Source: Singulisphaera sp.
Lineage (GTDB): Bacteria; Planctomycetota; Planctomycetia; Isosphaerales; Isosphaeraceae
NCBI GenBank assembly: GCA_027451445.1
Contig: DAIDJG010000013.1
Location: 1-64,000, forward strand
Length of the DNA stretch: 64,000 nucleotides
Direction of reading: 5' to 3'
The number at the start of each line of letters is the position of its first letter. Positions within the stretch are counted from its first letter, which is position 1. This document shows, piece after piece, positions 10,905 to 64,000 of the stretch. A program made the position numbers and the translations under genes. The notes below the pieces were generated by a model that worked only from the letters and a program-made list of their open reading frames with translations, made no database searches and had not been told where the DNA came from.

Positions 10905-11006
10905 TGACGGCCGTCACATTTTTGAATCGCAACGCCACATTCAACGGTCGGGCCGCGAGGGTCGCCGGCTGTTTGCTCATAACCTGCGTCGAGAGGAGTG
11001 TCCACC

Positions 11007-12959: not shown

Positions 12960-12995
12960 TCGCCGGAGCGCGCGCGCAGCCCAGTTTCAAAACGA

Positions 12996-13039
12996 GGCCC
13001 TCGTCGGACCACGGCGGGGGTCTTCTGTTTTGTCGTTTT
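12996..13039 (+). terminator. Intrinsic terminator after the pilus-type operon
   Basis: GGCCCTCGTCG (12996-13006) pairs fully, with three G-T wobbles, to CGGCGGGGGTC (13012-13022) around a 5-base loop. It is followed by a T-rich stretch TTCTGTTTTGTCGTTTT, 37 bases after the stop codon. Confidence 0.7.
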
Positions 13040-13206
13040 GGTGTAATCGTGCTGTTGGGGTTGCCCTTTGCGGTGAGAGCGGGCGTGGTTCATCCCTTGA
13101 GGCCCCGATACAATAGAGCGAGTACGATCCTTCCGCCGAGTGCGGGCGTTTTTTGACGCACCGAAAGATTCCCGCCGAGCGGGTGAGTCAACTCCGGGGG
13201 TGTCAC

Positions 13207-46792: not shown

Positions 46793-47271
46793 TTCTCGGA
46801 GGCGATGCGTTTGAGAACCCGGGGGCCATGCCTTTTAGCTCACGATCCGTTTTCCAGGGAATTGCGCTCGAAAGGCGACAAGGTGCTGTCCTGGGATCCC
46901 CATATAGTGGACCCCGAACGATGGACCACTCGGGCCACCTACATTGTTAAGGCTTTCCCCGGTCAGCGCGAAACCCCATAACAGCCCCGCGCACTCCACA
47001 CCCTTCCGATTCGTTTGGATGAACGGTTTCGCACGCCAGATTAAAACTTCTGTGCGCCCGCCACTTGCGGCTCGCAAAGTTTCGGGGTTTTCAAAAAAGT
47101 CTCAAGTGGGAATAATCCGCACGCTCGATCACTTCGCGACTCATTTCCTTGAAGTTTCCGCGATCGACTGACGACACGTTCGAGTCCGGCGCTCCTCCCA
47201 CGCACGCAAGCGTTCGGGGTGCGTACCGAGTGATCGCTGTGCGTACTCGCAGTCTTCGAGCAAGGAGTCTC
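46793..47271. other. Gene-free gap before the beta-helix gene
   Basis: 479 bases without a supported gene. It includes paired TGGACC strings near 46910-46925 and a GTTTCGGGGTTTTC stretch near 47080 like the hairpin strings at 33320-33420. The end is the leader of the gene at 47272, with AAGGAG 4 bases before its ATG. Confidence 0.4.
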
Positions 47272-50268
47272 ATGAATTCCCGTAAGTGGCGAGATTGGCT
47301 CAGCCCGGCACTCGGCTCGGGTGCAGGTCGGCCCGCACCGGCAAAGCGAAGCTGTGTGCTGCGCTGCGACTGGGAAGAGTGTGAACCTCGCGCGCTCATG
47401 TCGCTCGCGATCGATAGTGTCACGATCGCGAAGCCCGAAACGGGTTCGTCCTCCTTCGCGAATTTCACGGTCACGGAGAGTCAGCCAAATCTCAGCCAAA
47501 CCGTCGCTGTTCAGTATATGACCGAGGATGGGACGGCGAAGTCAGGGAACGATTACTCGAAAGTCCAGGGTACTCTCACGTTTGCGCCCGGGGTAACCGC
47601 CCAGAGTTTTTCCGTGCCGATTCTCGGCAACTCGACAGCGACGTCGGATACGACATTCAGCGTCCAACTGATCGACCCAGTGAACGACACGGTCGATTCG
47701 TCGGCGGCCGTCGGGACGGCTACGATCAACGTTGGAACACCGAGTAATTCGCAAGCCCCGTCACCAAGCTCGTCACAAACAGCCAGCACGACGAGCACGC
47801 CTCAGGCGTCGGATCCGCCAAGCAACTCATCGCCCGCTTCCCAGACCGGTTCAACTACATCCTCGGCACCCGTCGCTGTGACCCAGCCAAATCCGCCGCC
47901 GTCAACGGGTAGCAGCACCCAGCCTTCCGCCGATTCCTCGGCGCCTCCGGCGGGCTCGGACTCGTCTTCAGCGCCTGCGGCCGCAACCCAGTCGAACTCG
48001 ACATCCTCAACGAGTAGCAGCGCCCAGCCCGCGGCCGGTTCCTCCACAACGACCCCCGCCAGCACGCCGTCAACGACTCCAACGACGACGTCCCCAAATG
48101 GTTCTGAAGCGCCGACGTCATCGAGCTCGTTGCACACTTCTCCGACAAACTCCGCGCCGCCTTCGATCAGCGTGGCGCCAACATCCTCGCCCGATATCAC
48201 AGCGAACGACTCGCCAGCGCCCCCGATCACGGGAAGTAGCATCTCGATTAACAACGTGAGCGTTCCCTTGCCGGCGTCGGGAACGGCGACAGCGATGTTT
48301 ACCGTGGCACTGTCACAGCCGAACCTGGAGCAGACGATTACCGTCGCGTACGCCACTGCGGACGGCACCGCGAAGGCTGGGATCAATTACACGCCAGAGA
48401 GCGGAACCCTCACCTTTTCCCCGGGCGAATCCACCGCGACGATCAGTGTTCCCGTGTTGTCCAGTACGCTTACGGTTTCGAACCCGTCGTTCTTCGTGAA
48501 CCTGAGCGCACCGAACAACGCGACGATCTCACAGGGCCAGGGCGTCGGCACGATCGTCGGACAGGCGGTCAATCCCCTGGTCGTGACAAATACGAACGAC
48601 AGTGGCCTGGGCTCGTTGCGCAATGCGATTGAGTTCGCGGACGCAAATCCGAGCAACAACCCCATCACATTCGCTATCAACATTGCGGGCTCCGGTCCAT
48701 TCATAATCCAGCCGCGGTCACCGCTGCCGGCGATCACCCACCCGCTCACGATCGATGCCACCACTCAGCCCGGTTACGAAGGGACACCGGTCGTCGTTCT
48801 CGATGGGTCCCAGGCTGGCAGTCAGGCCAATGGCCTGTACATCACCGGCGGCGGCAGCACGGTCAAAGGTTTGACGATCGAGCGCTTCTCCGGTTCGGGG
48901 GTACAACTCCAGACAGGCGGCGGAAACACCGTCGTAGGCGACAACATCGGCACCAACGCATCAGGCGGGGTAGGCCTGGGCAACGCGATCGACGGGGTTC
49001 TCATCGCGGACTCGTCGAACAACACGATAGGCGGGATAGGCGCCGGCACTGCCAACGTGATCTCTGGGAATAGCATCGTGGGCGTGCGAATCCTCGGATC
49101 CGATTCGACGGGTAATGTCGTCGAGGGGAACTTCATTGGGACCAGCCCCCTTGGCTCGGCTGCGCTTGGGAATAAGACGGACGGCGTATTCGTGGACGGT
49201 GCGCCCGGCAACACGATCGGTGGCCAAAGCGCTGCGGCCCGGAACGTGATCTCGGGCAACGGTGCGGTCGGGGTCCAGATTGACGGCGCAACGGGCCTCG
49301 GCAACCTCGTCGAGGGGAATTACATCGGCACGGACGCGAGTGGCACCAACGCGCTCGGCAACGCGTTCGATGGAGTGTTTCTCAATGGCTCAGCGAGCAA
49401 CACCATCGGCGGGACGGCGCCCTCGGCCCGCAACGTCATCTCGGCCAACCAACTGACTGGCGTCCGGATCACGGGCAGCGGCGCGACGGACAATCTCATT
49501 CTCAACAATCTGATTGGGACGGACAGCGCGGGAACCGCCGCATTGGGCAATCGCTTCGACGGCGTGTTCATCAACGGGGCGCCGGGCAACGTCGTTGGCG
49601 GCACAACGACAAACGCCCGTAACGTGATCTCGGGAAATGGTTCAGTCGGCGTGCAAATCTTCTCGCCTTCGGCGACCGGCAACCAGCTTGTCGGCAACTT
49701 CATTGGCACCGATATCTCAGGTCTGGCGGCACTCGGCAACGGCCGGGACGGTGTCTTTGTGAATGACGCGCCGTCGAACTCAATCGGCGGGAGTGTCGCC
49801 GGATCGCAAAACGTGATCTCGGCCAACGGTCAGGTCGGACTTCAACTCTTCGGACGCGGGGCATCGGGAAACGTCGTGCAAGGAAATCTGATCGGCACCG
49901 GCGTCGACGGCATCACGGCGCTCGGCAACGAGTTCGGACTCTTCATCAATGGTGCGCCCAGGAACACCATCGGCGGTCCCGGCGCGGCCCAGAACACGAT
50001 CACGAACAACACGCACACAGACATCGTGCAAAACAACACTCCAAAAGCCGCTGCCGCCAAAGCGGCAGAGCAACCACAAACGACGGTCCATCCACGTCCC
50101 GCGAAACACACGAAGGCGAGCCAATCGGCAACGAATCAAGAAGCAACGAGCATTCTCAATTCACTTGGTCTCAGTTCAAGTTCCAAGGCGAGCAAGGCGG
50201 CCACTCGCGCGGCGCGGGCTCTCGCGGCACTTTCTCGCAACGCTGGCAACGAACAGGGCGCAACTTGA
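47272..50268 (+). CDS. Surface protein: LEPR-XLL-like signal, two Calx-beta domains, Ser/Thr/Pro linker, right-handed beta-helix
   Basis: 998 residues from ATG 47272 with AAGGAG upstream; a start at 47149 would precede the conserved signal by far. E-C-E-P-R-A-L-M-S (about residues 36-44) is a LEPR-XLL-type N-terminal signal. Calx-beta domains lie at about 49-155 and 322-430, each with D-G-T-A-K-x-G...D/N-Y and G-T-L-T-F-x-P-G. Between them is a long Ser/Thr/Pro/Ala linker. From about 434 a CSLREA-like T-N-D-S-G-x-G-S-L-R start leads into about seven beta-helix repeats with N-V-I-S-G-N, G-N-F-I-G-T and G-N-T-I-G-G turns. The stop is fused to the next gene's start (TTGA). Confidence 0.88.
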   Translation: MNSRKWRDWLSPALGSGAGRPAPAKRSCVLRCDWEECEPRALMSLAIDSVTIAKPETGSSSFANFTVTESQPNLSQTVAVQYMTEDGTAKSGNDYSKVQGTLTFAPGVTAQSFSVPILGNSTATSDTTFSVQLIDPVNDTVDSSAAVGTATINVGTPSNSQAPSPSSSQTASTTSTPQASDPPSNSSPASQTGSTTSSAPVAVTQPNPPPSTGSSTQPSADSSAPPAGSDSSSAPAAATQSNSTSSTSSSAQPAAGSSTTTPASTPSTTPTTTSPNGSEAPTSSSSLHTSPTNSAPPSISVAPTSSPDITANDSPAPPITGSSISINNVSVPLPASGTATAMFTVALSQPNLEQTITVAYATADGTAKAGINYTPESGTLTFSPGESTATISVPVLSSTLTVSNPSFFVNLSAPNNATISQGQGVGTIVGQAVNPLVVTNTNDSGLGSLRNAIEFADANPSNNPITFAINIAGSGPFIIQPRSPLPAITHPLTIDATTQPGYEGTPVVVLDGSQAGSQANGLYITGGGSTVKGLTIERFSGSGVQLQTGGGNTVVGDNIGTNASGGVGLGNAIDGVLIADSSNNTIGGIGAGTANVISGNSIVGVRILGSDSTGNVVEGNFIGTSPLGSAALGNKTDGVFVDGAPGNTIGGQSAAARNVISGNGAVGVQIDGATGLGNLVEGNYIGTDASGTNALGNAFDGVFLNGSASNTIGGTAPSARNVISANQLTGVRITGSGATDNLILNNLIGTDSAGTAALGNRFDGVFINGAPGNVVGGTTTNARNVISGNGSVGVQIFSPSATGNQLVGNFIGTDISGLAALGNGRDGVFVNDAPSNSIGGSVAGSQNVISANGQVGLQLFGRGASGNVVQGNLIGTGVDGITALGNEFGLFINGAPRNTIGGPGAAQNTITNNTHTDIVQNNTPKAAAAKAAEQPQTTVHPRPAKHTKASQSATNQEATSILNSLGLSSSSKASKAATRAARALAALSRNAGNEQGAT
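48900..50000 (+). repeat. Beta-helix coding repeats (~200 bp period)
   Basis: The codons for N-V-I-S-x-N followed by G-V-x-I, then G-N-x-I-G-T, then L-G-N-x-x-D-G-V-F and I-G-G recur about every 190-200 bases, for example N-V-I-S at about 49050, 49246, 49432, 49621 and 49810. Confidence 0.85.
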
Positions 50269-52703
50269 AACGTTCTCATCGGCGATCTCCTGGGGACCGC
50301 AAGAACGCCGGCCGGCTAAACTCCGGCCCGCTTGGCGGAGCGTCCCTGCGCAAGATCCTCAAGGGCGTTCTCGCTGTCATCGTCTGGACGTGCGCCACTT
50401 CTGCGGTGGAGGCGTCTGACCCGGTGGCGCGCCCCACTCCGGGCGTCCCTGGTGCGACGACTTCGTCGCCTGATACGCTTTCGGATCCCGCGAGCAATGA
50501 CACTTCCCGCAGCGCCGTGCCTCGTGGTCGACCCGTCGCCGACGCTCCGAAAAACCCCGCGATCAAACCATCGCGGCGACTGCCCGATGACGTCAACGCT
50601 GACCTCCCGAAGGCCGCCGATCCCTCTCGAACACAGCGCCCGCCCTACCGCGCCAATGTCGATTCTCCAACTAACGCGGCAACTACACCAGCGCAACGTT
50701 CTCCTTACGGACCGCGCAGCGACGCCCCAAGGGGTGCTCAACCTTCGCGGCCGCAACTCCCACCCCAGTTCACTCAGGGCGACACCCGAAGAAGCGATGA
50801 ATCCGGCGCGCAGCGACGCCCGCCGTATCGTCCGAACTCCAACGGTCCAAGTGATGGAGAGTTCCCACCCTCGAGACGCGTGCCTTACCGCGCTAACGCC
50901 GACGCGTCCGACGATGCTTGGCTCTCGCGGATGCGACGCCCACCCGACCGCGCTAACGCCGACGCATCCGACGCTACGGATTTCCCGCCGTCGCAACGCT
51001 CGCCGCGCAGCGCGGCCGTCGATACGACGGACGACGAACGGCTCTCGTGGACGCGACGGCCACCCTACCGCGTTAACGGCGATACCTCGAACGCTACGGA
51101 CTTCCCGCGATCGCAACGCGCTCCGGTCAGCGCTCACGCCGACACGTCGAATGACGAATGGCTCTCTCGGATGCGACGCCCGCCCTATCGAGCTAACGCT
51201 AATGCGTCAAATGACCCGGAACTTCCGCAATCGCCACGCCCGTCCTACCGCGTTGCTGGTGACGCATCCAACGTCAATGGACTCTCACGGCCGCGACGCC
51301 CTTCCTACTATCGTCCTGACGACGACGCACCAACCGACGACGACTTCACGCGGACGCAAGGTCCTTCGTCCCGCACCGCCAGTGACCTCCCGCAGGATGA
51401 ATACATAAGACGGGTCCAGATTCCCGAGGAATCGGGCGCTCCGCCGCCGAGAATGCCGGTGACGCGACGACCTACCGGCACATCGCGGCCACCGACGACC
51501 ACGACCCCGATCCCGCCATCGACCACTCAACCTGAGACGACATCCAATCAACCCTATAGCGAGGTCGCCCCCTCCGCGCCCGATACGATTGCGCCACCGA
51601 CGTCCGGGCTCGATTTCTCCAGGCTCAACACTCCCGGTGCGCTACAGCCCTCGGGCGTAGGCACAGGATCCGAAGACGTTGGTTTCAACTACTCGCCCAT
51701 GATGATCGGCGACCAGGCTCCTATGAGCGTCCATGCGCTCGCCTCGGCGGTGTTCCCCGGGATTCCTCCCGCGCCTGTCCCTGGCCAACCCCCAATTCCA
51801 CCCGCCCCGGGCGTGTCGCGCCAGCGGATTACGATCGCTGTCCCGTGGGCACGCGGGTTCAAGATCGCCGATAACCAGAGCCCTCGCCCACAGGACCGAT
51901 TCTTCTTTACGTTCAACTACTTTGATAATCTCGACAAGAGCATCAACAGCCGACTCGCTCCGACCTTCGGCGGTATGGCTGCGTACCGTTACCTGTTCGG
52001 CTACGAGAAGACGTTCTTTGATGGCAACGCCTCGATCGGCCTGCGTCTGCCGCTCGAAACCTTGACCGTGAACTCACGAGTCCCGGGTGGGGGCGGCGGC
52101 ACGAGCACAGCGCTCGGAAATCTCACCCTCTATTCGAAGGTGATGCTTCTGGAAAACCCTGCCAATGGCAACCTCCTCTCCGGCGGTTTGGCGGTGACCA
52201 TGCCGACCGGCCCCACCGCGTTCGGCGGTGCACCCGGGATCGCCGGCTTCCACGACGCCCAGGTACAGCCCTTCCTCGGCTACTACCGATCAAGCGGACG
52301 GTTCTACCTGCAGGGGTTCGAGGCGATCGATATTCCCACCGACCCCCATGACGTGACGATGCAGTACAACGACATTGGCATTGGATACTACCTCTACCGC
52401 AACTCCGACCCGAACGCGTTCGTGAGCGCCATCGCCCCCACGTTTGAGACTCATATCAACGTCCCCTTGAACCACGTCGGCGCATTTCGGCCGAACGATC
52501 CCGCAGGCACGCCGAATGTTGTAGACCTCACATTCGGCGTCAATCTCCTCCTACGGCAACGTTCGATGCTGACGTTCGCCTTCGTCAATCCCGTTACGGG
52601 TCCGCGGCCGTTCGACTTCGAGACCACGGTTCTGTTCAATTACTACTTCGGGCGCACGCGGGCCCGCCCCTCTAGCCTCACGCCGCCGCTCGGCGGAATG
52701 TGA
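50265..52703 (+). CDS. Exported protein with 20-residue Arg/Pro repeats and C-terminal outer-membrane-barrel-like domain
   Basis: 812 residues from TTG 50265, which overlaps the stop of the preceding gene (TTGA), so the two are coupled. A signal peptide (K-I-L-K-G-V-L-A-V-I-V-W-T-C-A-T-S-A) starts it. Residues about 125-365 are roughly 13 repeats of 20-21 residues, pattern R-R-P-P-Y-R-A-N-A-D-A-S-N/D-D-x-x-L-S-R. A Pro/Thr linker (about 375-440) leads to a C-terminal domain rich in alternating hydrophobic strands (F-F-F-T-F-N-Y-F, N-A-S-I-G-L-R-L-P, L-T-F-A-F-V-N-P) and ending in a strand (F-N-Y-Y-F-G-R) as beta-barrel proteins do. Porin-like role is inferred. Confidence 0.85.
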   Translation: MKRSHRRSPGDRKNAGRLNSGPLGGASLRKILKGVLAVIVWTCATSAVEASDPVARPTPGVPGATTSSPDTLSDPASNDTSRSAVPRGRPVADAPKNPAIKPSRRLPDDVNADLPKAADPSRTQRPPYRANVDSPTNAATTPAQRSPYGPRSDAPRGAQPSRPQLPPQFTQGDTRRSDESGAQRRPPYRPNSNGPSDGEFPPSRRVPYRANADASDDAWLSRMRRPPDRANADASDATDFPPSQRSPRSAAVDTTDDERLSWTRRPPYRVNGDTSNATDFPRSQRAPVSAHADTSNDEWLSRMRRPPYRANANASNDPELPQSPRPSYRVAGDASNVNGLSRPRRPSYYRPDDDAPTDDDFTRTQGPSSRTASDLPQDEYIRRVQIPEESGAPPPRMPVTRRPTGTSRPPTTTTPIPPSTTQPETTSNQPYSEVAPSAPDTIAPPTSGLDFSRLNTPGALQPSGVGTGSEDVGFNYSPMMIGDQAPMSVHALASAVFPGIPPAPVPGQPPIPPAPGVSRQRITIAVPWARGFKIADNQSPRPQDRFFFTFNYFDNLDKSINSRLAPTFGGMAAYRYLFGYEKTFFDGNASIGLRLPLETLTVNSRVPGGGGGTSTALGNLTLYSKVMLLENPANGNLLSGGLAVTMPTGPTAFGGAPGIAGFHDAQVQPFLGYYRSSGRFYLQGFEAIDIPTDPHDVTMQYNDIGIGYYLYRNSDPNAFVSAIAPTFETHINVPLNHVGAFRPNDPAGTPNVVDLTFGVNLLLRQRSMLTFAFVNPVTGPRPFDFETTVLFNYYFGRTRARPSSLTPPLGGM
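50635..51360 (+). repeat. 60-63 bp tandem repeats encoding Arg/Pro-rich units
   Basis: About a dozen copies of a unit encoding R-R-P-P-Y-R-A-N-A-D-A-S-x, recognisable as cgacgcccaccctaccgcg-type strings near 50810, 50935, 51055, 51175 and 51235. The copies are better conserved in DNA in the middle of the array. Confidence 0.85.
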
Positions 52704-52782: not shown

Positions 52783-55700
52783 CTACCCGACTGCGGACTT
52801 CCCTTTCTCCTTGAGGATCTGTTGAAGGCTCTGAAATTCCTTTCGATCTCGCAGGATGTTGAAACTGCGGTGGTCCAGGTCCTCTGGCCTTCCGAAGCCC
52901 TTCTCGACAGCCTCGCGAAGGCGCTGAAGGGCTCGATCGCAAAGCACTGAGACCGGAGTACCGGCGTCGGAACCGGCCGGTGCCCCCGTGTTCTGCAAGT
53001 TCGCGGCGAGCGCCAGGAGCCGCGCGGCGACGTAGTACGCCTTGGGTTCATCCGGAATGAAACTAAGAATCGCTTCAGCGGCCTTCGCCGCCGCAGCGCC
53101 GTCTTTCGACTGCCCCAGGATGGCCTCGAGATAGAGATAGTCCGTCACCAGGTACTGGCGGAACACGACATTCCGAGGGTTTGTATTGATGGCTAGCTTC
53201 TGCTGCTGGATCGCCTCGTTGAGGAGCCGGAGCGCATCGTCGCGCCGCGTGGGGTTGTCCTTGACGATGTTGACAACGCTGTCGATCGCCTGCCCGAGAT
53301 CGCTGTGGTATTCGGGGACATCGGGAAACTCTTCAATCAATTGCTCGATTCGTTTACGCGCGTTTTGAAACTCGGATTCGGATTCCTTCACATCGTGGTT
53401 TGCCAGGAACTGAAAAATGCCCAGATTGCGATGGGTAATCGCAAGTCGCTGGCGAAAGTCGGGCCGATTGGGGAATGCCTTCACGAGCGATTCGAAAGAC
53501 GCCAGCGCCGCTCGGAGGTGCGTTTCGGCCTCCTGCGGACGGTTCCGCCGTAGAAGTAGCATTCCCAGGTTGTTGTCGACCGTGGCGAGTTCTTGCCGAT
53601 AGTCGGGGACCGTGGGAAACCCACCCGTCAGCTCCTTGTACTTGTCATGGGCTTTGGTGAACGATCGCTCGGCTCCGTCCAGGTCGCGCTCATCTTGCTC
53701 GACAACCCCCAGATTGCTGAGCGTGCGCGCGACCTCCCATTGATAGGCGGCAACCGCAGGGTATTTGCTCGCGAGCTCGCCGTGGATCTTGAGGGCCTCA
53801 TCGTACTCCGCCCGGGCCGCTCGCGGATCGATCTGGCGCCTGAAGATTCCGAGGTTATTGCGGTACCGCGCAAGCTTGCGACGGTAGTCGGGCTGGTCCG
53901 GGTGTTGCGCCGCGAGCCGACTCTCCGCTTCAATCGCTTCCAGGTACGAAGATTCGACCTCCTGAGACCTGCCGGGCAGCCGCGCGAGCAATGCGCCGAG
54001 CTGGTACACGGAGTCTTTTTCGTCCTTCACGTATTCCGGCGTCTGGGGATATTGCTCCACGAGCAGCTTGCGCAAGTCGCGTGCCGCGCGAAATGCGGGT
54101 TCGGCCTCGCTGAACCGATTCGATTTTTTGAGCAGCATGCCGAGGTTGTGCCACGCGGCCGCCAGGTCCGCGCGTGCCATCAGTTCCTTCGGCACCAGCG
54201 GCTTGAGCATGTCGATGGCATCGTCGTAGTTCGATTCCGCTCCTGCGTAGTCACCGAGCATCTCCAGGATATCGCCGAGCCGGATGTGCGCGCGGCCGGT
54301 CTCGCGCCGCAATGTGCGGTCGTGTTCATGCTCGTTCAGGAACGCCTTGTAGAAATCCAGGGCCTTGGTGAGCATCACCTTGCGTACAGGTTCCATCTGC
54401 GGAACATCCACCAGGTCGACCGCACCTAATTCGGTGAGCATCTGGTCCACGGCGCTGCGTGCGAGGAGGTAGTTCCGTTCCGTCCGCGCCTGCTCGCGCT
54501 GGATCAGGACCGTGAAAACGGCCAGTGCGACGACCCCCGACAAGAAAAGTGCCGAGGTCGTCGTCACGAGCGTTTTGTGCCGCTTCGACCAGCGCGCGAG
54601 ACGGGTTGTCCAGGGCTCTCGATAGACCGAAACCGGCTCGTCCGCAAGCCAATGCTCGATGTCCTCGGCGAGTGCCCTCGCGGACGCGTACCGGTCCTCG
54701 GGACGAAGGGCCATCGCCTTGAGGCACACCGCTTCCAAGGCAGGAGGGACTCTCCGGTCGATCGCCCTCGGGGGAGGAAAATCACCTTTCTGCACCTTGT
54801 CGAGAAGCGCCTTGACAGTGCGTTCCTGGATCGGAGTCTGACCCGTGAGCAGGCAGTAGAGCGTCGCGCCCAGGCTGTAAATGTCGCTCGACGGACCGAG
54901 ACGATCGAGCAGGCCAGCGGCTTGCTCGGGGCTCATGTAGTGTGGAGTGCCGATGGTCGAGCCGAACAGCGTCTCACTGCTCCCGCCGGAAAGGGGCCGG
55001 AGCAGCGGCAGCTCGGTCGGGCTTCGCTGTCGTTCCTCCGGCCGGTCGAGCGCCTTGGCCAGTCCCCAGTCGACGACCAGGGTTTCGCCGAACGCCCCGA
55101 GCATGATGTTCGCTGGCTTGATGTCGCGGTGGATAATCCCTCGACTATGCGCATACTCCAGAGCGTTACAGACATCAATGAACTGCCCGAGGAGCTGCCG
55201 CAATTCCAGGGCACGAATGCCGGGGTCCCTGCGCGTTTTCTCAGCCTCATGAAACGCGTCGATCGCGTCCTTGAAGGGCTGGCCTCTGATAAACCGCATC
55301 GCATAGTACGGCCGGCCGTCCAGATAGCGGCCGAGGCCGTAGACCGGAACGATCCCGGGATGTTCCAGCCCTCCCGTGACTTCGGCTTCCAGCAGAAATC
55401 GGTCTCGGCTGTCAGGACTGTCCGCGTGGCGTTCCTGAATCTCCTTGAGCGCCACTTCACGGCCGAGCTCTTCATCGATCGCCACAAAGACTTCGCCCAG
55501 CCCCCCCTTGGCGTGCGAACGAATCGAACGATAGCGGCTCGCGCCCTCGTATGGAGACGCCCCAGGCCCACCCGAATCACGATACGAGCCATTCGCGGCG
55601 GACCGGACCGTGGTCACACCCGGAGGAGCAAGTTCAGTCGATACAGCCGCTTGGGTCGCGTAAGGGTCGTCCGAATGCGGATGCGAGGGGACGACTGTGG

Positions 55701-56232
55701 AAAGTGGGTCGACATCCGGCAGCGTGGAGTGGAGGTCGGACGGCGACGGGATTGTCGGATTTGCGGGTGAGCTTGGGGCAGCCCAGGTGTCCGATCGGAC
55801 AGACTCCCGAACCGTCGCATAAGGGTCGGGTTCCTGACGCGGTACGACGGTTGCGAGAGGGTCGACCTGCGTCGCAAAGAGATCATCGACGGGAGTCGGG
55901 CTCGGAGCATCAAGGCAGGCCAGAGCCTCGTGCAGGCCGGCATCATCGATCCGTTTCAGTTCCGAGCGTACACTCCCGAAGGTGCCCAACGAGGCAAGAC
56001 ACGCGCAGGCATCGTCGTTGTAGGCGGCTAGAACCTCCGCGCACGCTTCGGCGACGATAAGATGCTTGCCCGCCGAGAGGGTTTGTTGTTCGATGAGCAA
56101 GCGGGCGAGTGTGACCTCTTTCCGTCGAGTCCAGGCGAGCAGAGCACTCGTGAGCGCAGGAAGGTCGATGACGCCCATCTTGAGCGCGAGCAGACCAAAC
56201 AGCAGGTTTCGAGAAGCGTCAAGTCGTTCCAT
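52783..56232 (-). CDS. Membrane Ser/Thr protein kinase with C-terminal TPR repeats
   Basis: 1149 residues from ATG 56232 (an in-frame start 63 bases upstream is less likely). Residues 1-110 are an alpha-helical domain with an A-x-A-C-A-E-V-L segment, followed by a Pro/Ser-rich, Tyr-Ala-Thr-repeating stretch to about 230. The kinase domain covers about 234-510 with [12 protein letters not shown] (Lys263), [10 protein letters not shown] and V-D-W-G-L-A-K (DWG instead of DFG). A membrane helix near 555-580 and roughly ten TPR-like repeats with G-x-F/Y-R and L-x-N-L-G-x-L follow. It is divergent from the tss operon. Confidence 0.9.
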
Positions 56233-56563
56233 GGCAGGCAATCCGGAAGACGGCAGGGCGGACTCTTCGCTTAGCGTAACGAGGAAGGCCCACACACGCG
56301 ATGGGACTAACCGCCACGACGTTCATCGCGCGAGAGGCTGGGCGGTTCGCAAGCAATCGACTCGCCCACGACTCAACCCCTACAATCCGACCTCTTGCTA
56401 CGTTTCAGCAGACCGCCTTCGTTCACCGGATCATGCGGATTCGGTTGGGTTGTGTTGGCCGTGGGGTTGGGCTATTCTTTGGGGGCCGAGGGCGCTCAAC
56501 TGCGAAGTAACGCCCGGCCGAGGGGCGGTTCGGGCACGTTCGCCGAAAGGACAGATCAGGTCC
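56233..56563. other. Divergent gap between the TPR kinase and tssK
   Basis: 331 bases without a gene of its own. Contains the candidate tss promoter at 56450-56478 and should hold the kinase promoter. Confidence 0.4.
56450..56478 (+). promoter_or_regulatory. Candidate promoter of the tss operon
   Basis: TTGTGT (56450-56455) and TATTCT (56473-56478) separated by 17 bases, about 86 bases upstream of tssK. Confidence 0.4.
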
Positions 56564-57994
56564 ATGTCGACTCCAGCCGTTCATTGGTTCGAGGGAATGT
56601 TCCTTCGTCCCCACCACTTTATGACGGCGCAAAGGCACTGGGCGCACCAGGTTCACCAGAACACCCTTTTCGACCAGCACTATCACTGGGGCCTCCGGTC
56701 GATCGAACCGAACCTTGAAGCACTCAGTAACTTCCGCTTTGTCGTTCACAAGTTGAGTGCGCGGCTACGAGACGGCACCGTGATCTCTGTGCCGGAAGAC
56801 GGCGTCCTTCCTTCGCTCGATCTCAAGCAAGCGTTCGAGCAGACGAATAGCATCACCGTTTCACTGGGAGTCCCTCACTACTATCCGAGCCGCGCCAACG
56901 TTGCGGCCGACAGCGCAACGGAAGGGGTACGCTACCAGGTCGATACGCAGATGCTCGAAGACGAGAATACGGGGGTAAACCCCCAGCCGATCAAGATCCG
57001 ACGACTCAAACTGAAGCTCCTGCTTTCGACTTACGATCAGTCCGGCTACGAGGTCATCCCAATCGCCCGTCTCGTGAAATCGCAGAAGGCTGAGGCCACG
57101 CCGGAGCTTGACCTGAGCTACATCCCTCCCGTCCTCGCCTGCGACGCCTGGCCGCCACTCGGTACAAGCATCGTTCAGGCTGTGTACGACCGTATCGGGA
57201 AGAAAATCGAGCTGCTCGCCTCCCAGGTCACCAACCGTAACATCACCTTCGACAGCCAGGGGCAGGGCGACCCACTGATCTTTGCGCAACTGCGCGAGTT
57301 GAACGAGGCCTACTCGCTCTTCGGCATCCTTGCCTTCGCGCAGGGAGTCCATCCGCTCACCGCATACCTCGAACTGGCCCGGCTCATCGGTCAGCTCGCA
57401 ATCTTCAGCGGCACCCGAAGGGCACCCGAGCTCCCTCGTTACGATCATGACGACCTCGGAACGTGTTTCTACAGGGCCAAGCAGCAGATCGACGGCCTGT
57501 TGAATATCTTCGTCGAGCCGGAGTACAAGGAGCGTCCGTTCATCGGGGCAGGCCTGCGCATGCAGGTGGCGCTCGAGCCGTCGTGGCTGGAGTCGATCTG
57601 GGACATGTATATCGGCGTCCAGAGCCCTCTCGACACCGAGGAATGCATCCGGCTGTTGACCAAACCGGGCCAGCTCGACATGAAGATCGGTAGTTCGGAA
57701 CGCGTCGATGCCATTTTCAAGATGGGATTGGCCGGCCTTCGGTTCGACCACAGTCCAAGGCCCCCGCGCGCATTGCCCGCAGTACCCGGTTTGATCTATT
57801 TCCAGGTGCGACGAGAGGCGGCACAGGCTGAGTGGGTCAACGTCCAGAAGTCGCTGACGCTCGCGATTCGACTGAACGAAAACCTGATCGCCGGCAACAT
57901 CCAGGGCCAACGGGTACTGGCCATCCGAACCAGCGTTCAAAGCACAACCCTCCAATTCACGCTCTACGTGGTCGCCGCCGAATCTGTGAGGTAA
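56564..57994 (+). CDS. tssK: Type VI secretion baseplate protein TssK
   Basis: 476 residues from ATG 56564; longer readings upstream lack a sensible start. TssK (ImpJ/VasE) links the contractile tail baseplate to the TssL-TssM membrane complex. The N-terminal hallmark V-H-W-F-E-G-M-F-L-R-P-H-H-F is present, and residues 2-350 have the conserved L-R-S-I-E-P-N, F-x-F-A-Q-G-V-H-P-L-x-A-Y-L-E-L-A-R-L and L-P-x-Y-D-H-D-D-L segments. Length is normal. First gene of a run with tssL and a tssM-like gene. Adjacent sheath, tube or ClpV genes are not in this window. Confidence 0.93.
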   Translation: MSTPAVHWFEGMFLRPHHFMTAQRHWAHQVHQNTLFDQHYHWGLRSIEPNLEALSNFRFVVHKLSARLRDGTVISVPEDGVLPSLDLKQAFEQTNSITVSLGVPHYYPSRANVAADSATEGVRYQVDTQMLEDENTGVNPQPIKIRRLKLKLLLSTYDQSGYEVIPIARLVKSQKAEATPELDLSYIPPVLACDAWPPLGTSIVQAVYDRIGKKIELLASQVTNRNITFDSQGQGDPLIFAQLRELNEAYSLFGILAFAQGVHPLTAYLELARLIGQLAIFSGTRRAPELPRYDHDDLGTCFYRAKQQIDGLLNIFVEPEYKERPFIGAGLRMQVALEPSWLESIWDMYIGVQSPLDTEECIRLLTKPGQLDMKIGSSERVDAIFKMGLAGLRFDHSPRPPRALPAVPGLIYFQVRREAAQAEWVNVQKSLTLAIRLNENLIAGNIQGQRVLAIRTSVQSTTLQFTLYVVAAESVR

Positions 57995-58043
57995 ACTTTT
58001 CCACGTCTCCAACGCCGCGCCCTGCACTCCCTGAGCCCTCGAC

Positions 58044-58670
58044 ATGCAAGAGGACACAGCCAACTTCGTCCACGCGATCATCACGAGAGGGCTGGACTTG
58101 AAGGCCCGGCTCGACCGTGGCGAATCCCCAGCGTTTGCCACCGAGCAGGCAACCCTCGAGCGGCTCCTCCATAACGAGATGGCTGAGTCGAAGCAGTACA
58201 CCGACCTGGCCAGCGAGTTGGAGATCCGCTATGCCCTGGCCTGCTGGCTCGACGAGATCTTCGTCGGGAACTCGGCCTGGGATGCACTCTGGAACGAGCA
58301 CAAGGTGGAAGTAGCCCTCTTCGGCACCAACGAGCGCGCCTGGAAATTCTGGGAGAAAGCCCAGCGTGCGGCGACCCGTTCCGAGCTGGACATCCTCGAG
58401 GTCTACTACCTTTGCGTCATGCTCGGCTTCCGCGGCGAGTTGCGGGGCGAGCCCGATCGTTTGCAGGCCTGGGTCAACGTGACGCGCTCGCAGATCGAAA
58501 AGAACCAGGAATCGACCTGGCCGCAGCAGCCTGAGCTCGAACCGCCCGCGAAAGCGCCTCCGCTCCACGGGCGCGAGCTATTGCGGACCATGGTGGTCCG
58601 CGGAGCCTTTATTTTGTTCTTGCTGGTGCCGCTGGCGGCGCTGATGGTCGTAATTCAGTTTCGGCGTTAG
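58044..58670 (+). CDS. tssL: TssL/DotU-family type VI secretion membrane protein
   Basis: 208 residues. DotU family: cytoplasmic hook with Y-A-L-A-C-W-L-D-E-I-F, W-x-x-x-L-F-G and L-D-I-L-E-V-Y-Y-L-C-x-x-L-G-F-R-G, then a single C-terminal helix (M-V-V-R-G-A-F-I-L-F-L-L-V-P-L-A-A-L-M). No peptidoglycan-binding (OmpA) extension. It follows tssK by 49 bases. Confidence 0.92.
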   Translation: MQEDTANFVHAIITRGLDLKARLDRGESPAFATEQATLERLLHNEMAESKQYTDLASELEIRYALACWLDEIFVGNSAWDALWNEHKVEVALFGTNERAWKFWEKAQRAATRSELDILEVYYLCVMLGFRGELRGEPDRLQAWVNVTRSQIEKNQESTWPQQPELEPPAKAPPLHGRELLRTMVVRGAFILFLLVPLAALMVVIQFRR

Positions 58671-58700
58671 GGCGCTCGAGCACGTTCACGAGTGCGGTTA

Positions 58701-58773
58701 GGATCGGCTCCAAACGGAGCGTCGATCCTCGGAAGTGACGACCGGTCGGGCAAAGCCGATCTTCGTCACTCCG
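58701..58773 (+). promoter_or_regulatory. Two stem-loops between tssL and the tssM-like gene
   Basis: GGATCG-GCTCC-aaac-GGAGC-gt-CGATCC forms an 11-bp stem (58701-58728). CGGAAGTGACGA (58730-58741) pairs with TCGTCACTCCG (58763-58773) across 21 bases, one base bulged. Both precede the strong GGAGGAAGG ribosome site of the next gene. Confidence 0.5.
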
Positions 58774-58792
58774 AGACGGGAGGAAGGCAGAC

Positions 58793-60376
58793 ATGTTTTT
58801 GTTTAACGCACTCGCGCAGTTCGGTCGTCGCCTCATGGGAATGATCTTCCCGATGTTCCGCCGGGCGGGCTCGGTGCGTATGCCCAAGGCGCGTTTCGGC
58901 TGGTTCTGGCGCACGCTCCTCCTGGTTCTCATCCTGGTCGGCCTGTGGTTCCTGAATTATTTCCTGGGCCTTGAACGGTACGTGCGAGCGCCGCTGCACG
59001 TCCTGCGACAGTTCTGGCTCCCACTCTTATTCGTTTTGATCTATATCCTCTTCTGGCTGGGCGGCTCGCTCTGGAAATTGCTGGGTCCGGACCAAATTGA
59101 GAATCAGTTTCCGGACATCGATACGGCCTGGACGGAGGCCGTGGACGCGCTCGCCCAGGCGGGCATCAACCTGAGCGAGGCCCCGCTCTATCTCATCCTG
59201 GGCCAGCCGATGGGTGGCGAGAAGTCGCTGTTCAACGCTGCGGAACTGAAGTTGTTGGTCAAGCAAATCCCCCGCGGCTCCGACTCGCCATTGACGATCT
59301 CGGCGAACCAGGATGCGATCTACATCAACTGCCCGGGCGCATCACTCCTCGGCGAGCACGCTGAACGGCTCGCGAGTTCCGGTTCCCGTTCGCGATCTTC
59401 CGCGACTGCGGCAACGGCAGCCCCTCTACCCGCTGCCGTGCAGGAGACCGCGGTGTTCTTCGAACTCCCAGGCGAATCGTCGGCAGAATCCGAACCCGCG
59501 GACCAGGCGACCGCGGTGATGGTCGCCGACGAAGACGAAGAACCGGCGAGACAGTCGCGCTCGTCGCTCTTGCGCGACGCCGAGGAAGTCGAGCGTCTCA
59601 CCGCGCGGCTCCGTTACCTCTGCCAGAAAATCGCCCGGGACCGCCGTCCCTATTGCCCGATTAACGGAATTCTGCTGCTCATCCCGTTCTCGGCCACCGA
59701 TTCAGAGGTCGAAACGAAGGAAACCGCGACGCTGATTCAACGCGACCTGACCAATGCGCGCGAAGCCCTTCAGGTCCAGTGTCCGATCTTCGCGGTGGTC
59801 TGCGACACCGAGCGTGCCCTCGGTTTCGGCGACTTCCTGAGCTTCTACCCCGAAGGCCAGCGCCGGCGGTACCTCGGCCAGCAGTTTCCGCTTTCGCCCG
59901 ATCTCGATGCCTCGGCTCGGGTCCGTATGGTCGAGCGTGGGGTGCAATGGATCGGCAACTCGCTCCTCCCCTCCCTTCTCTACAAGAACTGGGACGTCGA
60001 AAGTGCCGGCCGAAGTGAGCTTTGGGAAACGACGAACCGGAACACGCGGTTGTACCAGTTCCTCTGGCAGATCCGCGATCGCCAGAAACGCCTCAGTCGA
60101 ATTCTGACGCGTGGAATCGTCATGCACAGTCAGGGCCCCACGATGCTCGGCGGCTGCTGCTTTGCCGCCACTGGCCGTGATCGTGCCCGCGAGCAAGGCT
60201 TCGCGTCCGCGGTCTTCCGGCTCCTCAACGATAACCAGAATTTCGTGTCCTGGACCCCCGAGGCCCTTGGCATTGAAGCGGACTACCGGCGCTGGACCCG
60301 TTTGGGATATGCGGCGTTGGCCGTTCTCGGGATCGGACTCATCGTCCTCGAATCTTATCTTTGGTTTCGGAATTGA
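58793..60376 (+). CDS. tssM: TssM/IcmF-like protein lacking the periplasmic domain
   Basis: 527 residues; usual TssM proteins are about 1100-1200. Two N-terminal helices (about 42-60 and 76-94), then the IcmF cytoplasmic domain: A-P-L-Y-L-I-L-G-Q-P-M-G-G-E-K-S at the P-loop position (normally GPPGSGKT-like, here with an inserted Glu), C-P-I-N-G-I-L-L-L-I-P-F, Q-C-P-I-F-A-V-V-C-D-T and a G-Q-Q-F-P-L segment. It ends after a third helix (L-A-V-L-G-I-G-L-I-V-L-E-S-Y), where a normal TssM would continue for some 600 residues in the periplasm. A strong ribosome site precedes the start. Loop residues suggest nucleotide binding may be lost. Confidence 0.85.
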   Translation: MFLFNALAQFGRRLMGMIFPMFRRAGSVRMPKARFGWFWRTLLLVLILVGLWFLNYFLGLERYVRAPLHVLRQFWLPLLFVLIYILFWLGGSLWKLLGPDQIENQFPDIDTAWTEAVDALAQAGINLSEAPLYLILGQPMGGEKSLFNAAELKLLVKQIPRGSDSPLTISANQDAIYINCPGASLLGEHAERLASSGSRSRSSATAATAAPLPAAVQETAVFFELPGESSAESEPADQATAVMVADEDEEPARQSRSSLLRDAEEVERLTARLRYLCQKIARDRRPYCPINGILLLIPFSATDSEVETKETATLIQRDLTNAREALQVQCPIFAVVCDTERALGFGDFLSFYPEGQRRRYLGQQFPLSPDLDASARVRMVERGVQWIGNSLLPSLLYKNWDVESAGRSELWETTNRNTRLYQFLWQIRDRQKRLSRILTRGIVMHSQGPTMLGGCCFAATGRDRAREQGFASAVFRLLNDNQNFVSWTPEALGIEADYRRWTRLGYAALAVLGIGLIVLESYLWFRN

Positions 60377-60520
60377 GGATCACACTAAGGAAAGGGGGGC
60401 CCGCCCATTCGAGACTCGCCGCCAAACCTCAACGGCGCAAAGGAGCCTCGGCAAATCGGTATTTACATCGACCGCATTGAGCGAGGAAGCCTGTTCCTCG
60501 ATTCTCCGATCACAGGTCTG

Positions 60521-63500
60521 TCACCGCCGGAGAAACAACTCCACCGTGGACAGCTCGCCTTGCCTCACCTCAACGGGTTCGTTCGCCGTCGTCCGCGATT
60601 CGCTCTTCTCGCTCACAACTGCGTAGCGGCCCGCCGCAACATTCTCGAAGAGGAACTCACCCCCGGCGTTGGTGACCTTCACGTCCCGCGCAGTCCCCTT
60701 CGCGTCGACGAGATAGACCTTGAGATCCGCCTGCGGCCGTTCTCCCTCCACAACCTTGCCCCCGATGCGTCCCACGGGGATCGGATCGGCTTCCGTGAGC
60801 TCGAGCTTCGCGGTATCGAATGCGCTCAGATCGACGTTGTTCACAAATTGAACGCTGACTTCCGCCGGCCCTTTTTTGTCAGGGAGCGGAACCTCGGCCG
60901 CCCAGGTGGTTTGGTCGTCGTCGAGCGGATGACCAGGCACGACCGTTACGCCCTGGGGGAGTTTATTGGCCTGAGGTTTGCCGACGAAGAAGTTGACCTC
61001 CTTGAGGCCGGATTCGCTCGCAATCCCAAATCCTTTGACCACCACCGTAGTCCCCTTCTTGGCATACGCGGGGACTTCAAAGATTTTGACTCGCTTCGGC
61101 GGACTGTTGTCGAGAACGAGAGGGAGCGTGACACTCTTGATTTCGACGTTGTCCTCCTGGAGCAGGCGCGCGAGGACTAATCGGGCACCTTCGATTCCCG
61201 CCGTTTGAAGCGGCACAATCCAGTCGCTCGCGGCCGTGTTGAATACAACCGTTCCGTTGGCGAGGAACATGAACCCCACGCGCAGTCGGCGACCCTCTCG
61301 GACGGGTCGCGTGTCAGGGACGAAGCTGCCTTTTTCCGTGTGGCCGAGGAGCACTTCGAGCACCGTATCGCTGGGTACGTTTTCGGGCTCGACGAGGACC
61401 TTGAACCCAGCGCCCGGAAGCGCCGAGGGAGCGGCCTGGAGGCGAAGTCTGGGCGTGAATTCGAGGCGAGGCGTCGTCGGGCTGCCTTGCCGCGCAAACG
61501 TCGCATGAAAAACGACCGCACGTGGCACGCTATCGATATTGAGGTAGAAGTAGCCGTCTTCCTTGGCCTCATCCCGGAGTTGGATGTTTTCAGCGAAGAG
61601 CGTGAGCTCCGACCCGTCGGCAGGCAACGTTCCGATAAATGTTCCACTATCGGCCGCGATCAGCCCAGGGATACGGTCACGAGGCAAGACAAGTTCGACC
61701 GAGCACGGCGGACCACTCAGCGGAGTCGTCGCTTGCAGGGTCACCGAGAGCCGGTTAAGCCGATTGTTCTTCGGATTAGCCGGGGTGAATTTCGCTTCGA
61801 GAATACGCACATATTCCAGCGGCGACGCCAGGTTCACCTGAATGTCGCGCTGCGCCAGCACGGCTCGTTGGTTTTCCTCGTCAAGCACCTGGATCCGCAA
61901 AGGACCCTGAAGCTCGGGGAGTTCGGGCGCGACATCCGGCTTGCCGGCCCCGTCGGGTTTCGCGGTCGACTCAGGTGTCGGTGTACCTCCGCCGATCTTC
62001 TCCCGGTCGCCCGAGCCATTCGAAGAAAACGCGACAACGCCGCCGACACCTGTCGCGAGATCCTTCACCTCCACGCTGACCTTGCGGGGCTTGCCTGTCG
62101 GGTTCACCACGGCGACAAAATAAGTCTGACGGTCCTTGACCGGCCGAAGCCGGAGATTGGCAAGCGGAGCCGCAGGCTGGTTCGGGGCATCCCCGACGAG
62201 AATTCCCCAGGGAGCGACAAGCCTTGGGACCGAGACCGGCACTTTGGCGTAAAAGGATCGCCCATCGACCTCGCCCTTGAGAAGAAACCCCTGCGGGATC
62301 GGTCCCGTCGCCGTCTCACTGCCGACTTTCCAGGAGACCCGGACCGCGTAGCGAGCGGACTCCGCAGTCGACGAGGCCGGTTCGATCGCAACGCTGAGCC
62401 GCGGGTCATCCGGAGCGACGACTTCGAGACGAGGCTTTTCGTCTGGGTTGGAGGCGCGTACGGAGATGGTCGCCGAAGCACGCGGCGCGGAGGAGGTCAG
62501 AGTCAACCGTTCCGGAATACCGCTGAACTCCAGATAGCTCAGCGCTGGCGGCATGGCAAGGCTCTTATAAGCTCGCGCCGCATCAGCATAAAACATCGTG
62601 CCGTCGAGATCGTGGCTTTCATATTCGTACCGTTCGGCGAGCCACGCCCAAAGCGCCAGGGCACGCGAGTTGCGCAACTGAACCGTCGGGTTGCTCGTGG
62701 CGTTATCGAGCAGCGGTCGTGGTAGGAACGGCGATAGCCAACGGCTGAGCCGATCTTGCGTCTCGGTGTTCGCCGTGGTCGCAAACTCGCCGGCCACTTT
62801 GTCCTGCCAGGCCACGCGAAGGTCTCGTGCGAGTAGGTAACGCCGCACAGGAGTCGAACCCGGCTCAAACGCCTCGTCGAGGTTGTCCCGCAATGGTTTG
62901 AGAGCGTCCTCGCCCAGATCCGCCGCCAATCCCAGCAGTTGAATCGACCAACGAGTTCGCCGCTTGGCGGCATCGAGTGTATCCGAATCATCATCGCTCG
63001 TGTCTTCGCTGCCGCCCGAGACAGGGATCGACTCACCCTGGGCTTCATCCTGGCGGTCAATGGCAAGCGTCGCAGCGTTGAGACGATGTGACAGCGATCG
63101 GCGAGCATTCCAGAGCTCGATCCGCTGCGCGGCCTTCGGGAAAGGCGTTGCCAACAGATCATCAAGCTCTAGCAAGCTCTCCGCATCGGCTTCGGGGACC
63201 TCACTGCGCGCGATCAGTCGACGCACGGCGTCCGCGCTGAACGGCTGGCGCAGCTCGTCGAGATGATCACGGAGCGCGGTGGTCTTTTGTTTGAGTACCT
63301 CAACCTTCTGCAGCAATTCGGCGGCCGAGAACTTATAGTCGTGGGGCTCGGCCTTGGGAGGTGCCGCGAGTCCCGCAGAAATCTCGCGCGCTTCGCGGAC
63401 CGCGTCTTCCCACGCGTTTTCGAGATCAGGCGCGCTCGCAAGAAAGGACGCGGCGGGTGGAAGAATGAGCATCGCGTCGTCGAGCGCATGCCGGGCCCCG

Positions 63501-64000
63501 ACGATGGCGGATTCGTAATCAAGAATTGTCGTGTAGCGTGCCGCGGATCGCGTCAGGAGTTCCTGTGCCTCGTCAGACGGTACGAATCCAGTCGACCCGA
63601 GCAGGACCGCGCCATCATGCCGGAGCTGAGCCGCCTCGGCCAGCGCTTGGCGGACCCACGGAAGCGCGTACGGTTGGCTTTCCGCTCGTGCGGACAGGTG
63701 GGCGATGTCCAGAACCAGGCGAGCCGTACCCGCCGGCCAGGGAGCCTTGGACTCGCGGACCTGGCGCCCGAGCGCGGCCAGGCGCCTCAGCGTCAAGTTC
63801 TCCTCGTAGATCAGGTCGGAGGGGAGCAACTGATCGAGAAAGATCAGCTTCTCCGGTTGCGGGGAGACGTCCGACTCGGCTTCGGCAAAGACGGCCCAGG
63901 CGAGGTCAAACGGCGACCACTCAGCCGCTTTGGCCTGAAAGTCGGCCACGGTCTTTTCGAGTGCTTTGTCCACCTCCTCGGGGGTCTTGGCTTTCTTCGC
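60521..64000 (-). CDS. Very large unrecognised protein with C-terminal carboxypeptidase-regulatory-like domain (partial)
   Basis: The frame is open from the right edge (64000) to the stop at 60521, 1159 visible codons; a GTG at 63973 is unlikely as start because similarity-looking sequence (AKKAKTPEE) continues upstream. N-terminal third: alpha-helical, with L-D-I-A-H-L-S-A-R-A and Leu-rich helices, no signal visible in the part seen. Middle and C-terminal parts are beta-rich Ig-like modules (A-L-L-x-Y-L-E-F, L-R-I-Q-V-L-D-E, V-F-E-V-P-A-Y-A-K-K-G). The end (G-R-I-G-G-K-V, N-A-G-G-E-F-L-F-E-N-V-A-A-G-R-Y-A-V) matches the carboxypeptidase-regulatory/CnaB-like fold. It converges with the tss operon 145 bases away; a functional link is unproven. 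Confidence 0.75.
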   Translation of the reverse strand, partial: AKKAKTPEEVDKALEKTVADFQAKAAEWSPFDLAWAVFAEAESDVSPQPEKLIFLDQLLPSDLIYEENLTLRRLAALGRQVRESKAPWPAGTARLVLDIAHLSARAESQPYALPWVRQALAEAAQLRHDGAVLLGSTGFVPSDEAQELLTRSAARYTTILDYESAIVGARHALDDAMLILPPAASFLASAPDLENAWEDAVREAREISAGLAAPPKAEPHDYKFSAAELLQKVEVLKQKTTALRDHLDELRQPFSADAVRRLIARSEVPEADAESLLELDDLLATPFPKAAQRIELWNARRSLSHRLNAATLAIDRQDEAQGESIPVSGGSEDTSDDDSDTLDAAKRRTRWSIQLLGLAADLGEDALKPLRDNLDEAFEPGSTPVRRYLLARDLRVAWQDKVAGEFATTANTETQDRLSRWLSPFLPRPLLDNATSNPTVQLRNSRALALWAWLAERYEYESHDLDGTMFYADAARAYKSLAMPPALSYLEFSGIPERLTLTSSAPRASATISVRASNPDEKPRLEVVAPDDPRLSVAIEPASSTAESARYAVRVSWKVGSETATGPIPQGFLLKGEVDGRSFYAKVPVSVPRLVAPWGILVGDAPNQPAAPLANLRLRPVKDRQTYFVAVVNPTGKPRKVSVEVKDLATGVGGVVAFSSNGSGDREKIGGGTPTPESTAKPDGAGKPDVAPELPELQGPLRIQVLDEENQRAVLAQRDIQVNLASPLEYVRILEAKFTPANPKNNRLNRLSVTLQATTPLSGPPCSVELVLPRDRIPGLIAADSGTFIGTLPADGSELTLFAENIQLRDEAKEDGYFYLNIDSVPRAVVFHATFARQGSPTTPRLEFTPRLRLQAAPSALPGAGFKVLVEPENVPSDTVLEVLLGHTEKGSFVPDTRPVREGRRLRVGFMFLANGTVVFNTAASDWIVPLQTAGIEGARLVLARLLQEDNVEIKSVTLPLVLDNSPPKRVKIFEVPAYAKKGTTVVVKGFGIASESGLKEVNFFVGKPQANKLPQGVTVVPGHPLDDDQTTWAAEVPLPDKKGPAEVSVQFVNNVDLSAFDTAKLELTEADPIPVGRIGGKVVEGERPQADLKVYLVDAKGTARDVKVTNAGGEFLFENVAAGRYAVVSEKSESRTTANEPVEVRQGELSTVELFLRR

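What the first reader, a model, noticed from the sequence alone, without database searches (positions are those of the whole stretch)
56564..60376. Compact T6SS-like membrane/baseplate operon with a TssM lacking its periplasmic half
Seen: canonical TssK and TssL hallmarks, then a TssM-like protein that stops after its third helix at 527 residues and has G-Q-P-M-G-G-E-K-S at the P-loop position. In proteobacterial T6SS the periplasmic TssM half meets TssJ at the outer membrane. Its absence points to a different envelope-crossing architecture, possibly fitting the planctomycete envelope. The operon is at a kinase junction.
Basis: partly seen in the sequence, partly recalled or inferred. Interest (0 to 1): 0.62.

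Follow-up and report, generated by a model that had tools for sequence, protein, structure and literature searches.

The report
Secretion machine with swapped envelope-spanning parts
In one large class of planctomycete bacteria the toxin-injecting type VI secretion machine has lost the outer half of its membrane anchor (TssM) and the anchor's partner TssJ, and it instead travels with a pair of giant, apparently undescribed membrane-anchored proteins that probably do the same job.

Summary
TssK (56564-57994), TssL (58044-58670) and a 527-residue TssM (58793-60376) that ends just after its third membrane helix are real. The short TssM is neither an error nor a decaying gene. The genome holds a second copy (520 aa, 34% identical) and no periplasmic TssM domain, and about 107 of 248 genomes of the same class carry such a TssM. 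Other classes of the phylum keep a long TssM, many with TssJ. The rest of the T6SS lies on the same contig beyond the window; ClpV is elsewhere. The new result is next door. The gene convergent with tssM (60521 onward) is one of two paralogous giants (about 1300-1900 aa), here called PG-A and PG-B: a short cytoplasmic tail rich in Trp-Arg motifs, one membrane helix, a caspase-like domain without the full catalytic pair, a helical stretch, then Ig/transthyretin-like (A) or vWA (B) domains. PG genes occur in 90 of 108 class genomes with a TssM hit against 1 of 140 without, also within genera and when unlinked. The one class genome with a full-length TssM has none. Best reading: TssL plus a TssM stub, with PG-A/PG-B as the envelope-spanning part, a new T6SS variant. 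That the PGs form the conduit is inferred.

The parts
56564..57994 (+). tssK, baseplate subunit, 476 aa
   Evidence: PF05936 1.3e-77; TIGR03353 277 bits, cut-off 100
58044..58670 (+). tssL (short DotU type with C-terminal membrane helix), 208 aa
   Evidence: PF09850 9.1e-22; helix near residue 188
58793..60376 (+). short tssM: cytoplasmic domain and three membrane helices, no periplasmic half, 527 aa
   Evidence: PF14331 6.5e-14, no PF06761; aligns end to end with eight other short TssM
60521..64000 (-). PG-A, C-terminal 1159 residues; the gene runs to contig position 65341 (1606 aa in all), convergent with tssM
   Evidence: ORF 60521-65341 on contig C13; 30% identical over about 1400 aa to the gene next to the second short tssM; co-occurs with short TssM; C-terminal Ig- and transthyretin-like domains

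Best explanation
This is a type VI secretion system with a hybrid membrane complex. TssK docks on TssL and on the cytoplasmic domain of TssM as in canonical systems, but TssM stops at the inner membrane. Two paralogous giants, PG-A and PG-B, supply the periplasmic part in place of the TssM ectodomain and TssJ. Each is held by one N-terminal helix with the tail inside. The tail carries W-R/K/Q motifs that probably dock on the cytoplasmic machine. The roughly 1500-residue body lies in the periplasm: a pseudo-caspase domain, a helical middle, then vWA (PG-B) or Ig plus transthyretin-like (PG-A) domains. Shown: sequence families, domain content, the missing TssM half and TssJ, gene association, and a predicted signal peptide on the C-terminal half of PG-A where the gene is split. 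Inferred: periplasmic location of the intact bodies, assembly with TssL and TssM, the envelope-spanning role, and use in secretion.
For: (1) Short TssM is conserved: 108 of 248 class genomes match, nearly all with frames of 450-660 aa; proteins end just after the last helix. (2) TssJ 0/21 and PF06761 0/21 class genomes in the phylum sample; other classes keep long TssM, 40 genomes with TssJ. (3) PG within 10 kb of 24 of 43 short tssM loci, 0 of 8 control regions, in places in the order PG-tssM-PG on one strand (L059, L060, L062, L085, L086, L094, L096). (4) PG (E<=1e-40) in 90/108 TssM+ against 1/140 TssM- class genomes, and within 17 genera 39/43 against 1/30, permutation p<=5e-5. (5) It holds when unlinked: about 420 kb apart in G121, 2.4 Mb in G315. 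(6) G375, the one class genome with full-length TssM (PF06761 2.5e-84), has no PG match; outside the class no TssM-bearing genome has a PG match at E<=1e-30. (7) Topology: on average 5.6 K/R in the 20 residues before the helix, 1.8 after; where PG-A is split (for example L111, L112, L123, L067) the C half starts with a signal-peptide-like sequence. (8) Clustering of the neighbourhoods found no other envelope protein family shared by most loci.
Against: No biochemistry or imaging. 18 of the 108 TssM+ genomes lack a PG match at 1e-40: one is G375 with a long TssM, several have weaker matches, several are incomplete, but some may truly lack PG (G409 is 100% complete and has none). No PG has an evident outer-membrane anchor, so how the outer membrane is crossed is open. 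The structure models are mostly low confidence (mean pLDDT 45 and 38). The W-motif excess (46 of 55 tails against 20 expected) is a statistic, not a binding result.
Confidence: 0.7

Rival explanations
1. PG-A and PG-B are T6SS-dedicated accessory proteins (sensors, gates or regulators that report contact or envelope stress) rather than the structural conduit; the conduit is another protein or the short TssM alone.
For: Caspase-like and vWA domains are common in signalling and conflict proteins; the vWA metal motif is kept in 24 of 29 aligned PG-B segments, and most of the others start beyond it; PGs are unlinked in some genomes.
Against: No aligned PG keeps the full caspase catalytic pair. No other shared envelope candidate was found. 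PG tracks the loss of the TssM ectodomain and TssJ rather than T6SS as such.
Confidence: 0.2
2. The truncated TssM is a degenerating relic and the TssKLM locus is no longer functional.
For: The Walker A motif is absent.
Against: The open frame and C-terminal end are conserved over many families of the class; TssA/B/C/E/F/G, Hcp and VgrG are present and ClpV is in the genome.
Confidence: 0.03
3. The PG genes are old neighbours kept by chance synteny or by moving in the same islands, with no functional link.
For: Many are adjacent to tssM.
Against: Association holds within genera and when the genes are hundreds of kilobases apart; the genome with a canonical TssM in the class lacks PG.
Confidence: 0.05

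Closest known systems
Canonical T6SS (T6SSi) membrane complex TssJ-TssL-TssM, for example EAEC Sci-1 (PMC3213119)
   Same: TssK, TssL and the cytoplasmic half of TssM are homologous; sheath, baseplate, Hcp, VgrG and ClpV families present. The EAEC TssM ectodomain is helical then beta, and TssJ has a transthyretin fold; PG-A has a helix-favouring middle and a transthyretin-like last domain (analogy only).
   Different: No TssM ectodomain, no TssJ; two giant pseudo-caspase proteins instead.
Bacteroidota T6SSiii with the TssNQOPR membrane complex (PMC10781749)
   Same: A T6SS whose canonical membrane complex is replaced; several components have one N-terminal helix and a periplasmic domain.
   Different: T6SSiii lacks TssL and TssM altogether; here TssL and the TssM N-half remain. 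PGs carry caspase-like and vWA domains not described for TssNQOPR in the passages read.
Acinetobacter T6SS without TssJ (PMC10564176)
   Same: No TssJ; lineage-specific envelope-associated proteins.
   Different: Acinetobacter keeps a TssM periplasmic domain.
Caspase (C14 / EACC1-associated type) and vWA proteins
   Same: Domain homology: NF047832 2.4e-12 to PG-B; hhalign 99.3% to a C14 protein of the same genome; vWA profile matches in the PDB.
   Different: Catalytic pair not kept in any aligned PG, membrane anchor, giant size, and co-occurrence with T6SS.

Membership tests
Type VI secretion system (core machine) | TssB/TssC sheath, TssE/F/G/K baseplate, Hcp, VgrG, ClpV | tested here: met
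   TssK; TssC; cluster on contig C13 (TssB, E, F, G, Hcp and VgrG called by reading and by mutual similarity between loci, not by a curated model); TssA; ClpV 1309 bits on C358, cut-off 885
T6SSi membrane complex | TssL present | tested here: met
   PF09850 9.1e-22
T6SSi membrane complex | TssM cytoplasmic domain and three membrane helices | tested here: met
   PF14331 6.5e-14; helices; Walker A absent
T6SSi membrane complex | TssM periplasmic ectodomain (PF06761) | tested here: not met
   absent from the genome; above cut-off in 1 of 248 class genomes
T6SSi membrane complex | TssJ outer-membrane lipoprotein (PF12790) | tested here: not met
   0 of 21 class genomes including this one
T6SSiii membrane complex | TssL and TssM absent | tested here: not met
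   TssL and the TssM N-half are present
T6SSiii membrane complex | TssN/Q/O/P/R present | not tested
   no search was made for these proteins
Active caspase (C14) | catalytic His and Cys | tested here: not met
   no aligned PG keeps both residues
Caspase fold (as a domain) | sequence homology to C14 | tested here: met
   hhalign 99.3%; NF047832 2.4e-12, below its curated cut-off; a PDB profile search found nothing
TssJ-like fold in PG-A C terminus | structural match to TssJ | tested here: inconclusive
   last domain is transthyretin/CnaB-like, Z about 10; TssJ is not among the rows shown, which does not exclude it

The most novel reading that the evidence does not exclude
PG-A and PG-B form a hetero-oligomeric trans-envelope channel built by co-opting a caspase/vWA protein: pseudo-caspase domains as a ring above the inner membrane, a helical shaft, a metal-dependent vWA site acting as a gate or latch, and a transthyretin-like tip doing TssJ's job. 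It would be a further independent solution to anchoring a T6SS in a diderm envelope.
Probability: 0.35. Interest if true: 0.88.

Novelty: new variant of a known kind. Interest (0 to 1): 0.77.

Why it matters
The membrane complex is the part of T6SS that differs most between lineages, and how it opens the outer membrane is unsettled. A class-wide hybrid that keeps TssL and the TssM stub but swaps everything outside the inner membrane separates the two halves of TssM function by natural experiment and names the genes to test. It also means that searches requiring TssJ or full-length TssM would miss these planctomycete systems.

Tried and rejected
Sequencing error or relic: rejected by the second copy and class-wide conservation. 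Periplasmic TssM half elsewhere in the genome: not found. P-loop reading of GQPMGGEKS: not a Walker A motif. Search of named genomes with the two-sequence TssM alignment gave one locus, and a nine-sequence alignment was too divergent to search with. PDB profile searches with the TssM alignment and with the pseudo-caspase alignment found nothing meaningful. The TssM structure model is unusable (mean pLDDT 38). The PG-A C-terminal model is reliable only over its last 190 residues or so; TssJ was not among the fold matches shown. No Rfam match in 56000-64000. No PG-A match in plasmids. PADLOC: no match. Promoter and terminator scans were at chance level. Papers: no description of this planctomycete membrane complex in the searches made; most subscription papers and preprints are not held.

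Full report
Observation. The three genes are as described: TssK, TssL and a 527-residue TssM-like protein. The TssM has only the cytoplasmic IcmF-related_N domain and hydrophobic helices near residues 33, 75 and 507. The proposed P-loop is not a Walker A motif; none of 46 short TssM sequences has one, against 12 of 22 long planctomycete TssM loci.

The system is not a fragment. The window is the first 64 kb of a 125-kb contig. The next 30 kb hold two giant genes, a CorA-like gene, VgrG, TssA, an FHA/adenylate-cyclase-like gene, TssG, TssF, TssE, three Hcp-like genes, TssC and TssB (TssA confirmed, TssC). ClpV is on another contig. A second TssK-TssL-TssM set with a 520-residue TssM lies on contig C191, followed by a convergent giant gene 30% identical to the one next to the window's tssM. 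A small contig, C156, ends in what looks like the missing start of that giant and carries a partner giant; that the two contigs join is inference.

Class-wide loss of the periplasmic half. In 294 genomes spread over the phylum, the TssM N-domain was found in 67. In the window's own class all hits were open frames of 523-611 aa, and neither the periplasmic domain PF06761 nor TssJ was found in any of its 21 genomes. Outside the class the frames are mostly over 1000 aa, PF06761 is found in 36 genomes (35 above cut-off) and TssJ in 40. A profile of nine short TssM found 108 of 248 class genomes, nearly all with frames of 450-660 aa. In 45 proteins read from loci, the median number of residues after the last helix is 6 and the maximum 43. 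PF06761 was found above cut-off in one class genome, G375, whose TssM hit is a 1382-aa frame; so 107 of the 108 are of the short kind or fragments of it.

The giants. Two paralogous families, PG-A (window gene 60521-65341, 1606 aa) and PG-B (66598-71709, 1703 aa), lie within 10 kb of 24 of 43 short tssM loci and in none of 8 control regions. In seven loci they flank tssM on its own strand. Over 248 class genomes, PG matches at E<=1e-40 occur in 90 of 108 TssM-positive and 1 of 140 TssM-negative genomes (Fisher p 6e-48, which ignores relatedness; the 1e-40 line was chosen after seeing that ordinary caspases give weaker matches, and at 1e-30 the counts are 95/108 and 10/140). Within 17 genera that contain both states the counts are 39/43 and 1/30, permutation p<=5e-5 (counts transcribed by hand). 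Linkage does not explain it: in G121 the genes are about 420 kb apart and in G315 2.4 Mb. G375, the class genome with a canonical TssM, has no PG match. In the phylum sample the only non-class PG match at E<=1e-30 is a 438-aa frame in a genome with no TssM hit.

Anatomy of the giants. N-terminal tails, mostly 25-70 aa, are rich in W[RKQ] pairs: 46 of 55 tails have one, against 20 expected from shuffled tails. Then comes one helix with many more basic residues before it than after (5.6 against 1.8 per 20 residues), which predicts tail inside and body outside. In several loci (for example L111, L112, L123, L067) PG-A is split in two genes, and the second, the C-terminal half, starts with a signal-peptide-like sequence, so at least that half is predicted to be exported. 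The domain after the helix is caspase-like: hhalign 99.3% against a C14 region of the same genome, NF047832 2.4e-12 for PG-B, below its curated cut-off. The His and Cys positions are not both kept in any aligned member. A helix-favouring stretch follows at about 300-900 (rough propensities). PG-B carries a vWA domain (PDB profile matches to 2.8e-9) with the DxSxS metal motif in 24 of 29 aligned segments; most of the rest begin after it. PG-A ends in an Ig-like and a transthyretin/CnaB-like domain. TssJ of EAEC also has a transthyretin fold (PMC3213119); this is noted as analogy only.

Mechanism. Shown here: what is present, what is missing, and what co-occurs. Inferred: TssK, TssL and the TssM stub make the cytoplasmic and inner-membrane platform, PG tails dock on it, and PG bodies build the periplasmic conduit. 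Clustering of all neighbouring genes found no other envelope protein family shared by most loci, which makes the PGs the best candidates. The main rival is that they regulate or gate rather than span.

Comparison. It is a T6SS by its core genes, but it fails two defining features of the TssJLM membrane complex. It is unlike T6SSiii (PMC10781749), which lacks TssL and TssM altogether, and unlike the Acinetobacter system (PMC10564176), which keeps a periplasmic TssM. No paper found in the held library describes it.

Limits. 18 TssM-positive genomes lack a strong PG match. Structure models were mostly low confidence. Nothing was tested at the bench.

Noticed in passing
L067 (JAKOSN010000033.1) 9800-13191: Two short tssM genes in tandem (555 and 566 aa) in one locus, next to a PG-A split in two and a PG-B.
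   Followed up: partly
contig C13 65414-66601 (outside the window): A CorA-type magnesium transporter gene lies between PG-A and PG-B; not seen as a recurrent neighbour elsewhere.
   Followed up: partly
L093 7804-10674 (G409): A 956-aa TssM-like protein with a long N-terminal extension that still ends after its last helix; its genome (100% complete) has no PG match.
   Followed up: partly
L071, L073, L098, L099: A subgroup of the window's family has a 472-483 aa TssM with five hydrophobic segments, and L073, L098 and L099 have a shorter giant (1311-1318 aa).
   Followed up: no
contig C13 77098-78396 (outside the window): Signal-peptide protein, possibly repeat-containing, with relatives near T6SS or PG genes in three other genomes.
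   Followed up: partly
47149-52703: A 1039-aa ORF with Calx-beta-like and IGG..NVISGN repeats, followed by an 812-aa ORF with Arg-Pro-rich repeats.
   Followed up: no
52783-56295 (-): Large Ser/Thr kinase with TPR repeats divergent from tssK; relatives sit near only a few of the other loci.
   Followed up: partly
own genome, contigs C31, C262, C493, C143: Four further TssC-like sheath genes outside the C13 cluster; only two TssK and two TssM genes were found, so some sheath loci lack their own membrane complex or are split by contig ends.
   Followed up: partly
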